Shown here one piece after another: positions 2,797-4,595 of a stretch of 12,388 nucleotides of DNA (position 1 is the stretch's first letter; every line of letters begins with the position of its first letter). Position numbers and translations under genes: made by a program. This DNA comes from Planctomycetota bacterium (lineage in GTDB: Bacteria > Planctomycetota > Planctomycetia > Planctomycetales > Planctomycetaceae): assembly GCA_023429275.1 (NCBI GenBank), contig JAEYWB010000720.1:1-12388 (forward strand), in the 5' to 3' direction. Below the pieces are notes generated by a model. That model did not search any database, had not been told where the DNA came from, and worked only from the letters and a program-made list of their open reading frames with translations.

Positions 2797-2857
2797 TCAG
2801 TCCTGTTACCTGTTACCCGCCACCTTGTGTACGAAGCGCTTCTGGTAACATGAAACA
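2797..2857. repeat. Short 7-bp-period repeats and palindromes in the divergent promoter region
   Basis: TGTTACC occurs twice in perfect tandem (2804-2810, 2811-2817), flanked by looser heptamers sharing the CC ending (TCAGTCC at 2797, CGCCACC at 2818). The inverted copy GGTAACA lies at 2844-2850, followed by TGAAACA. Between them is a perfect 10-bp palindrome GAAGCGCTTC (2833-2842). The block lies about 100-150 bp upstream of the candidate -24/-12 site, the usual distance for enhancer sites bound by sigma-54 activators. It could equally be one more member of the 7-bp intergenic repeats seen elsewhere in the window. Confidence 0.55.
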
Positions 2858-4595
2858 TCACTCCATGTTCGCAACAGATCCCTCCAGACTGCTCATCGCC
2901 GTGGCGGCCGGATCCGGGCAGATCGCCCGCGTCGCTATCGATGCGGGTGCGGACCTGCTGCTCGTGCTGAACGCGGGGCGGTACCGCTCGCTCGGAACCG
3001 GCTCGCTGGCATCATTCCTTCCCTACGGCAACGCCAATCAGCAGACGGTCGATCTGCTCCACGACATCCTGCCGGTCGGCCGCCAGGTTCCGGTTGTGGC
3101 AGGGGTGTTCGGGACGGACCCCGAGATCGTTCTCGACGAACATCTCGACCGGTTGCGTGAGCTCGGAGTGGCGGGCGTGACCAACTGGCCGTCCCTCGGC
3201 TTCGTCGACGGCCGCTTCCGCCTCGCCCTCGAAGAGGAGGGGATCACCCCGGCGAGCGAAGTCGCGATGCTCGCTGCCGCCCGGGCCCGGGGGCTGGGGA
3301 CGATCGCCTTCGTTCATACGGAAGAAGACGCCGCCCTGTTCGCTCCGGTGAGCGACGGCATGATCCTGAATATCGGGCTGACCCACGAGATCGACAGCCG
3401 CCAGGACCATCGCGATCAGATCCAGTCGGGCATCTCGCGACTCTCCGCAATGCGGGCCGCGGCCCGGCGGATCAACCCGGGTGTCTTCTGCCTGATGTTC
3501 GGAGGAATCGTCACAACGGCGCAGGACTTCGAATCGGTCCTCGTTCGCTGCGACATCGACGGATTCGCTGGCGGATCCGTCTTCGAGCGACTGCCGATCC
3601 AGCCCGCCGTCGAGGCGACGATCCGGCAGTTCCGGTATGTCGCCCGGCACGGTCCGGCGGGGGCCGCGACCGCGAACGAGGGGCCGCTCGTCGGCGAAAC
3701 GCCGGTGATGCGGGAGCTTCGGAGCCGGATCGCACGGATCGCCCCGTTCGACGTCAACGTCTGCATCGAGGGAGAGACCGGAACCGGCAAGGAGCTTGTC
3801 GCGGCCGAGATCCATCGCCTGAGCCCGCGCCGCGAAGCCCCCTTCATCACGCTCAACTGCGGCACGATGACCGACTCTCTCCTCGAGAGCGAGCTGTTCG
3901 GCTACGAGAAGGGAGCCTTCACCGGGGCGGACCGCCGCCACGCCGGCAAGTTCGAGCGAGCCCACGGCGGAACGCTGTTCCTCGACGAAGTGGCCGACCT
4001 GACCCCGCGCGCCCAGGTCGCGCTGCTGCGGGCGATTCAACAGGGAGAGGTGCTGCGGATCGGCAGCGAGAAGCCGCTTCACGTCGACGTCCGAATCGTC
4101 ACCGCCACCCACGTCGATCTTCGCAAGCGGGTCGACGACGGACTCTTTCGAGCGGACCTTTACTTCCGCCTGAACCAGATGCCGCTGCGCGTCCCCCCGC
4201 TTTGGGAGCGGCTCGACGATCTGGGCCGGCTGACGAAAACGATCCTGGCGCGGCTCGCGCCCCGGGTCGGCCGGCCGCTGACCGGTATCACGTCAGCCTT
4301 TGAGCGGCGGCTTCGCACCTATTCGTGGCCCGGCAATGTGAGAGAGCTGGAGTTCGTCCTCTGCCGTGCGGCGATCCTGGAGGATGGCCCGGTCCTCAAG
4401 GGGACGACGATCGAGTTCAGTTCCGTCGCCCCGTCATCGACTCGGAGCATCGCCAGCGAGGAGCCTCCCGCTACGGAAAAGACCAACCGCGAACGAGCGG
4501 AGGAGGCGCTCGAGCGGGCGAAGGGAAACAAGACCCAGGCCGCACTCGAGCTCGGCGTCTCGCGAAAAACCCTCTACGCGTGGCTGCGCGAGTAG
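2850..4595 (+). CDS. Sigma-54-dependent transcriptional activator with N-terminal PEP-hydrolase-like TIM barrel
   Basis: 581 aa from the ATG at 2850. The ATG at 2865 is an equally possible start, as neither has a Shine-Dalgarno; the frame is open back to 2736 but that part has no domain character. Residues about 12-265 match the 'phosphoenolpyruvate hydrolase-like' TIM barrel (COG5564/PF09370): VLNAGRYRSLGTGSLASFLP, VVAGVFGTDPE, GVAGVTNWPSLGFVDGRFR, GFAGGSVFERLP. Next comes a complete AAA+ sigma-54 interaction module: Walker A GETGTGKE (308-315), GAFTGA loop (355-360), Walker B GGTLFLDE (373-380), FRADLYFRLN (433-442), WPGNVRELE (493-501). A Fis-type HTH ends it (about 545-581, NKTQAALELGVSRKTLYAWL). 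There is no receiver or PAS domain, so the TIM barrel is presumably the ligand-sensing input. It is divergent from the lipoprotein/DUF1559/Tm-1-like operon, its likely target. It ends 64 bp from the convergent desaturase-like gene, with no convincing terminator between. Confidence 0.93.
   Translation: MKHHSMFATDPSRLLIAVAAGSGQIARVAIDAGADLLLVLNAGRYRSLGTGSLASFLPYGNANQQTVDLLHDILPVGRQVPVVAGVFGTDPEIVLDEHLDRLRELGVAGVTNWPSLGFVDGRFRLALEEEGITPASEVAMLAAARARGLGTIAFVHTEEDAALFAPVSDGMILNIGLTHEIDSRQDHRDQIQSGISRLSAMRAAARRINPGVFCLMFGGIVTTAQDFESVLVRCDIDGFAGGSVFERLPIQPAVEATIRQFRYVARHGPAGAATANEGPLVGETPVMRELRSRIARIAPFDVNVCIEGETGTGKELVAAEIHRLSPRREAPFITLNCGTMTDSLLESELFGYEKGAFTGADRRHAGKFERAHGGTLFLDEVADLTPRAQVALLRAIQQGEVLRIGSEKPLHVDVRIVTATHVDLRKRVDDGLFRADLYFRLNQMPLRVPPLWERLDDLGRLTKTILARLAPRVGRPLTGITSAFERRLRTYSWPGNVRELEFVLCRAAILEDGPVLKGTTIEFSSVAPSSTRSIASEEPPATEKTNRERAEEALERAKGNKTQAALELGVSRKTLYAWLRE

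What the first reader, a model, noticed from the sequence alone, without database searches (positions are those of the whole stretch)
2850..4595. A Tm-1-family TIM barrel used as the sensor of a sigma-54 activator, facing a Tm-1-like gene
Seen: a PEP-hydrolase-like TIM barrel replaces the usual receiver or PAS input of a sigma-54 activator with intact GAFTGA and Walker motifs. The divergent operon ends in a UPF0261 protein. Known: plant Tm-1 fuses a UPF0261-like half to exactly this TIM-barrel type, and bacteria often encode the two as neighbours. Inference: the TIM barrel binds the metabolite handled by the Tm-1-like system and switches the operon on. No separate TIM-barrel enzyme is in the window. 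As I recall the family, the GGPI-like and MGLT-GG segments are altered here (MFGGIV, IGLTHEID), which could mean sensing without catalysis.
Basis: partly seen in the sequence, partly recalled or inferred. Interest (0 to 1): 0.7.

Follow-up and report, generated by a model that had tools for sequence, protein, structure and literature searches.

The report
Gene switch sensing through disarmed enzyme
This bacterial gene switch appears to sense its signal with a disarmed copy of a metabolic enzyme whose intact relatives usually sit beside the same neighbouring gene; the domain pairing was already catalogued, but the loss of its likely catalytic residues and a candidate DNA-binding site give a concrete way to look for its unknown signal.

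Summary
The ORF ending at 4595 (+) joins a PF09370 TIM barrel (E 1e-74) to a sigma-54 AAA+ domain with GAFTGA and a Fis-type HTH; the divergent gene at the window edge is UPF0261. The architecture is not new: all 120 listed hits (first one the window's own) are the same fusion, and a 2016 paper states it.
What I add:
(1) Two His invariant in stand-alone PF09370 proteins (145/145, 144/145) are lost in 114/117 and 117/117 sensors, while R54, N71, N120, E145, S253 and R257 are kept in 116-117 of 117. This suggests a pseudoenzyme that binds without turnover.
(2) Fusions lie within 4.5 kb of UPF0261 in 13 of 15 loci read, stand-alones within 1 kb in 29 of 32.
(3) The window and a Bacteroidota relative share a GTTAC/GTAAC cluster beside the activator start, about 90-100 bp from -24/-12-like sites facing the divergent genes. 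Statistics are modest; the window promoter is not significant alone.
The ligand is unknown; fold neighbours hint at a phosphorylated one. No planctomycete neighbourhood besides this window (itself planctomycete by inference) could be read.

The parts
2865..4595 (+). Sigma-54-type activator with N-terminal PF09370 barrel (alternative start 2850; longest ORF from 2736)
2883..3635 (+). PF09370 TIM-barrel sensor domain (residues 50-300 of the 619-aa reading)
3369..3371 (+). Asn codon where stand-alone proteins have invariant His (H183)
3498..3500 (+). Phe codon where stand-alone proteins have near-invariant His (H226)
3687..4187 (+). Sigma54_activat AAA+ domain
   Evidence: E 2.9e-66
3912..3929 (+). 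GAFTGA loop
   Evidence: sequence; G[AS]FTGA in 110 of 117 relatives
4500..4580 (+). Fis-type HTH (HTH_8)
   Evidence: E 8.2e-9
2803..2850 (.). Candidate activator-binding region: GTTAC at 2805 and 2812, ACCTTGTGTA at 2822-2831, GTAAC at 2845
   Evidence: same motif at the same place in L001 (9914-9938)
2687..2703 (-). Candidate -24/-12 promoter TTGGTATCGCTTGTGCG facing the divergent genes
   Evidence: not significant alone (P 0.15 on this strand; seven other places in the window score higher)
2232..2609 (-). Small lipoprotein-like gene (MARFHMLLFVLLAGC...), first gene of the divergent run
   Evidence: no Pfam or NCBIfam match; lipobox read by eye
1191..2168 (-). DUF1559 pseudopilin-like protein
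   Evidence: PF07596 E 2.8e-50
3..1139 (-). UPF0261 (Tm-1-like ATP-binding) protein, cut by the window edge
   Evidence: PF06792 and PF23189

Best explanation
The protein is a one-component sigma-54 activator. Its N-terminal PF09370 barrel is a pseudoenzyme: it keeps much of the conserved framework of the stand-alone PF09370 proteins but has lost two His and neighbouring residues that are invariant in them. It most likely binds a (probably phosphorylated) metabolite of the UPF0261/PF09370 pathway. That binding lets the AAA+ ring remodel sigma-54 polymerase at a -24/-12 promoter around 2687-2703 (-), acting from repeats at 2803-2850, so that the divergent genes that include UPF0261 are expressed. 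Shown: domains, neighbours, residue pattern. Inferred: ligand, direction of control, operator and promoter.
For: Domains. Same architecture in all 120 listed hits. Residue pattern: H183 kept in 145/145 stand-alones and 3/117 sensors; H226 in 144/145 and 0/117; Y48 is L in 107/117, S50 is A in 109/117, S254 is V in 109/117; R54, N71, N120, E145, S253, R257 kept in 116-117/117. Both His are the last residues of barrel strands (179-183 and 222-226 of the stand-alone model), the face where barrel active sites lie (general knowledge). The alphaproteobacterial sensors in that alignment (6 of the 14 loci fetched) also lack both His, 6 of 6. Sensor groups form their own clades, 99/100 and 100/99. Neighbourhood: 13 of 15 fusions within 4.5 kb of UPF0261. 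Divergent layout with a stand-alone PF09370 gene plus UPF0261 in L001. Shared GTTAC cluster and facing -24/-12-like sites, joint P 0.003.
Against: No planctomycete neighbourhood other than the window could be read, so conservation there is untested. The window -24/-12 site alone is not significant: P 0.15 on its strand, 0.21 on both, and seven other places in the window score higher. The whole-intergenic word test gave P 0.138 for 5-mers and 0.477 for 8-mers; only 6- and 7-mers, or a last-65-bp stretch chosen afterwards, were significant. No such cluster was found in 6 alphaproteobacterial loci. The first two divergent genes (lipoprotein-like, DUF1559) belong to kinds recalled as very common in planctomycetes and may be a separate unit. 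120 of the 145 stand-alone sequences are close relatives of one protein (effective number of the 145: 26.8). Three of 117 sensors keep H183. No source seen here tests the function of the two His.
Confidence: 0.6

Rival explanations
1. The barrel is still an enzyme (with changed chemistry) fused to an activator, so that turnover, not mere binding, reports flux.
For: Many framework residues, including E145, R54, D98 and E256, are kept.
Against: H226, Y48 and the two glycines G190 and G193 are changed in at least 116 of 117 sensors, H183 in 114 and S50 in 109; the sensor clade is separate from the stand-alones on a long stem, 1.94 changes per column.
Confidence: 0.12
2. The barrel senses a ligand unrelated to UPF0261, or acts by protein contact (for example with the stand-alone enzyme or the UPF0261 protein); the adjacency in the window is incidental or reflects a complex.
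For: Two of 15 fusions have no UPF0261 in the DNA fetched, 5-6 kb to each side (L027, L115); the divergent run begins with two genes of other kinds.
Against: 13 of 15 fusions do neighbour UPF0261, and L001 from another phylum has the same divergent layout.
Confidence: 0.2
3. Nothing beyond a known Pfam architecture: an ordinary one-component activator whose neighbour carries no special meaning.
For: The fusion is catalogued.
Against: The family-wide loss of residues invariant in stand-alones and the repeated neighbourhood are more than the catalogue entry says.
Confidence: 0.08

Closest known systems
PF09370 (PEP_hydrolase; formerly TIM-br_sig_trns, as I recall), structure 2P10 (Mll9387)
   Different: Stand-alones keep both His, Y48, S50 and the GGxIG loop; the window barrel does not.
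PF09370-AAA+ fusions of Alphaproteobacteria ('phosphoenolpyruvate hydrolase family protein' / 'sigma-54-dependent Fis family')
   Same: Same domain order, 31-32% identity over about 92% of the query (ten rows listed); 12 of 14 loci read have UPF0261 within 4.5 kb and a stand-alone PF09370 gene within 6 kb.
   Different: 13 of 13 examined lack the string GAFTGA and several have changed Walker motifs; their barrels form a separate clade.
NtrC-family one-component activators (NifA, PrpR, DmpR class)
   Same: AAA+ with GAFTGA, Walker motifs, Fis HTH.
   Different: Input is an enzyme-like TIM barrel rather than GAF, PAS, V4R or receiver (input types of the others recalled).
Plant Tm-1-like protein
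   Same: Both of its halves, UPF0261 and PF09370, occur here as neighbouring proteins (PMC5028733, abstract and passages).
   Different: Not fused to each other here; PF09370 is fused to a regulator instead.

Membership tests
PF09370 domain family | Profile match above the curated cut-off | tested here: met
   251.4 bits against 33.8
PF09370 domain family | TIM-barrel fold like 2P10 | tested here: met
PF09370 stand-alone (presumed enzyme) group | Residues invariant or nearly so in stand-alones (H183, H226, Y48, S50, G190, G193) | tested here: not met
   Window has N, F, L, A, I, R
PF09370 stand-alone (presumed enzyme) group | Catalytic activity | not testable with these tools
Sigma-54 enhancer-binding protein | Sigma54_activat AAA+, GAFTGA, HTH_8 | tested here: met
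Sigma-54 enhancer-binding protein | -24/-12 promoter at the target | tested here: inconclusive
   Window P 0.15, L001 P 0.005, joint 0.003, with recalled consensus weights
Tm-1-like (UPF0261 + PF09370) gene pair | UPF0261 gene present | tested here: met
   cut by window edge
Tm-1-like (UPF0261 + PF09370) gene pair | Stand-alone PF09370 gene adjacent to UPF0261 | not testable with these tools
   None in the window; DNA beyond base 1 is not held

The most novel reading that the evidence does not exclude
A whole family of sigma-54 activators senses through a catalytically dead copy of the enzyme that belongs to the operon they control, with a GTTAC-type operator conserved across phyla. The inactive barrel would then be a handle to identify the unknown substrate of the Tm-1/UPF0261 pathway, including its plant version.
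Probability: 0.5. Interest if true: 0.6.

Novelty: new member of a known kind. Interest (0 to 1): 0.42.

Why it matters
No biochemical function for bacterial UPF0261 or PF09370 proteins showed up in the listings and passages seen, although the fused plant protein Tm-1 inhibits tomato mosaic virus replication. A sensor barrel that seems to bind but not convert the pathway metabolite would be a direct way to find that metabolite: screen ligands on the barrel, then give them to the stand-alone enzyme. The residue list (H183, H226 and the retained R54, N71, N120, E145, S253, R257) also names the residues to study in the enzyme.

Tried and rejected
A planctomycete plasmid locus could not serve as a centre for the genome search. 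Among Bacteroidota genomes, 19 of 296 had a PF09370 match and one of these had a frame of fusion length; 1 of 101 and 1 of 2 genomes matched the full activator at E 1e-100, each time the same genome. The viral-contig scan with the full-length alignment drew both of its patterns from the AAA+ domain and returned 80 of 199 relatives, which I did not study further.

One origin of all sensor barrels against two: unresolved. The joint clade has support 60/39, and the program warns that long branches meet there.

GTTAC-type clusters in alphaproteobacterial loci: none in the 6 loci tested, as might be expected if their different HTH reads another site, but also a result that limits the motif to two loci.

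Rows dropped before counts: 3 short fragments of the 120 listed fusions (P0028, P0045, P0060) were left out of the alignment of 117; 7 of 19 further Bacteroidota PF09370 places over the cut-off were not fetched; of the 36 plasmid records with a place covering 80% of the activator, I read 14 fusion loci chosen, skipping near-identical strains.

Full report
Check of the observation. The ORF ending at 4595 (+) carries PF09370 at residues 50-300 (E 1.1e-74), Sigma54_activat at 318-484 (E 2.9e-66), AAA_lid_14 and a Fis-type HTH_8. The database copy has 576 aa, so ATG 2865 is the likelier start; ATG 2850 is also possible. Divergently, a small lipoprotein-like gene (2232-2609), a DUF1559 pseudopilin-like gene (1191-2168) and UPF0261 (3-1139, cut by the edge) run on the minus strand. 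The gaps between them are 63 and 51 bases, so one operon is possible but not shown. No whole genome is held. That the window is planctomycete is my inference, from DUF1559 (its four plasmid hits are all from planctomycetes) and from the closest named relative of the activator.

Is the architecture new? No. The search with the barrel gave 131 proteins, 120 listed, the first being the window's own; all 120 carry PF09370 and PF00158 (only proteins of similar length were candidates). Some bear the source name 'DNA-binding NtrC family response regulator/predicted TIM-barrel enzyme'. Of 11 rows whose name shows an organism, 8 are planctomycete (the closest a Planctomicrobium sp., 69% identical in the barrel) and the others are Anseongella, Sphingomonas and Fibrobacteria. 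[quoted passage not shown] The Tm-1 origin paper calls it the TIM-barrel signal transduction domain (PMC5028733, abstract and passages). A 2008 Photorhabdus paper labels plu1011 'TIM-br_sig_trns domain, putative sigma54-dependent transcriptional activator' in the operon plu1012-1010, where plu1012 bears a domain printed as PrK012399, which I take to be PRK02399, the UPF0261 type (PMC2422844, passages; model name). Whether plu1011 really carries an AAA+ domain was not checked.

Neighbourhood. I could read 15 fusion loci: 14 alphaproteobacterial plasmid loci and one from a genome labelled Anseongella (Bacteroidota). The barrel lies within 4.5 kb of a UPF0261 gene in 13; L027 and L115 have none in the DNA fetched (annotations). 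The set is biased: the loci were picked from hit lists and many are rhizobial. Stand-alone PF09370 genes lie within 1 kb of UPF0261 in 29 of 32 cases, including a haloarchaeal, an actinobacterial, a vibrio and several Bacteroidota loci; L011, L020 and L021 had none by this test, and the contig of L020 ends soon after the gene. In Anseongella the activator is divergent from a stand-alone PF09370 gene followed by UPF0261. The solved structure 2P10 is encoded beside a Tm-1-like gene, with two genes between it and such a fusion. Many alphaproteobacterial loci also hold sugar ABC transporters, Gfo/Idh/MocA oxidoreductases, cupins or SRPBCC proteins, so the pathway looks catabolic.

Sensor against stand-alone. 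I aligned 145 stand-alone proteins (effective number 26.8), 117 GAFTGA-type sensors (79.6; three short fragments of the 120 left out) and 6 of the 14 alphaproteobacterial sensors. Two His are invariant or nearly so in stand-alones: H183 in 145/145 and H226 in 144/145. In the 117 sensors H183 becomes N 76, D 23, G 11, A 3 or S 1 and stays H in 3; H226 becomes F 94 or Y 23. In the 6 alphaproteobacterial sensors neither His remains. Y48, S50, S254 and the glycines G190 and G193 are also changed in the GAFTGA-type group; the alphaproteobacterial ones keep G193 in 6 of 6 and G190 in 4 of 6. R54, N71, N120, E145, S253 and R257 are kept in 116-117 of 117 and in 6 of 6. The AlphaFold model of the stand-alone (mean pLDDT 77) puts H183 and H226 at the last residue of strands 179-183 and 222-226; the window model (86.6) puts their counterparts N169 and F212 likewise (strands 165-169 and 208-212).

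Evolution. In a tree of 64 barrels, GAFTGA-type sensors (23 rows, 99/100), alphaproteobacterial sensors (13 rows, 100/99) and stand-alones (28 rows) separate. Whether the two sensor groups share one origin is unresolved (60/39). The alphaproteobacterial fusions lack the string GAFTGA in 13 of 13 examined, of 14 fetched, so they probably do not act through sigma-54. In the window's group 110 of 117 have G[AS]FTGA and 7 have GAFTSA or GAFTNA; a Walker B pattern was found in 117 of 117 and a strict Walker A pattern in 85 of 117 (the other 32 were not looked at further).

DNA sites. The pentamer GTTAC/GTAAC occurs 6 times in the 12.4-kb window, three of them within 45 bases just before the activator start (2805, 2812, 2845). 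In L001 it occurs 36 times in 20.75 kb and the only cluster of three within 60 bases is at the same place (9914, 9924, 9934). Both regions share ACCTTGTGTA; 14 of 500 shuffled pairs shared a word that long. Shuffle tests for a shared repeated word gave P 0.138 (5-mers), 0.022 (6-mers), 0.019 (7-mers) and 0.477 (8-mers) over the whole intergenic regions, and 0.0035 and 0.0015 (5- and 6-mers) for the last 65 bases, a stretch chosen after seeing the sites. Random placement of the two regions gave a shared clustered 5-mer in 0.9% of draws. On the strand facing the divergent genes, -24/-12-like sites lie about 100 bases (window) and 90 bases (L001) from these repeats: TTGGTATCGCTTGTGCG (P 0.15 alone; seven other places in the window score higher) and TTGGTCCTACATTTGCC (P 0.005), joint P 0.003, with recalled consensus weights. 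The layout fits a sigma-54 activator acting from upstream sites on divergent genes and perhaps on its own gene. It rests on two loci.

Verdict. A well-formed one-component sigma-54 activator with what looks like a PF09370 pseudoenzyme sensor, beside a Tm-1-like gene. The kind is known; the residue pattern and the candidate operator make its unknown signal testable. No paper describing the His loss or the operator appeared in the listings of the searches made, and a 2025 survey of sigma-54 regulons had no mention of Tm-1 or phosphoenolpyruvate hydrolase in its main text (PMC12316311, term search and passages). This covers only the open-licence library.

Noticed in passing
L002-L006, L027, L111, L113-L118: Alphaproteobacterial PF09370-AAA+ fusions lack GAFTGA in 13 of 13 examined although annotated as sigma-54-dependent or PEP hydrolase proteins; they probably regulate without sigma-54.
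   Followed up: partly
L111:1357-1947, L006:9701-10330, L118:7789-8286, L002:5348-5953: A third, short (165-209 aa) PF09370-like protein matching only the middle part of the profile is encoded near these fusions, on the opposite strand (two of the four tested are over the Pfam cut-off).
   Followed up: partly
L111:3275-4132: This gene product contains a piece of about 100 residues identical to structure 2P10 and lies next to a Tm-1-like gene, with two genes between it and a fusion regulator, on plasmid pMLa.
   Followed up: yes
L023:2657-4909: A Variovorax ORF annotated as ABC transporter permease contains a UPF0261 match at 3716-4783, suggesting a transporter-UPF0261 fusion or misannotation.
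   Followed up: no
window:4660-11727: RND efflux adaptor and permease pair (6707-8068 and 8230-11727, +), preceded by a CrtI/CrtD-like FAD oxidoreductase on the minus strand at 4660-6087.
   Followed up: no
PMC5028733 passage; window:3-1139: Plant UPF0261 domains were reported to branch within planctomycete genes, so the window's UPF0261 may be close to the donor lineage of plant Tm-1; not tested here.
   Followed up: no
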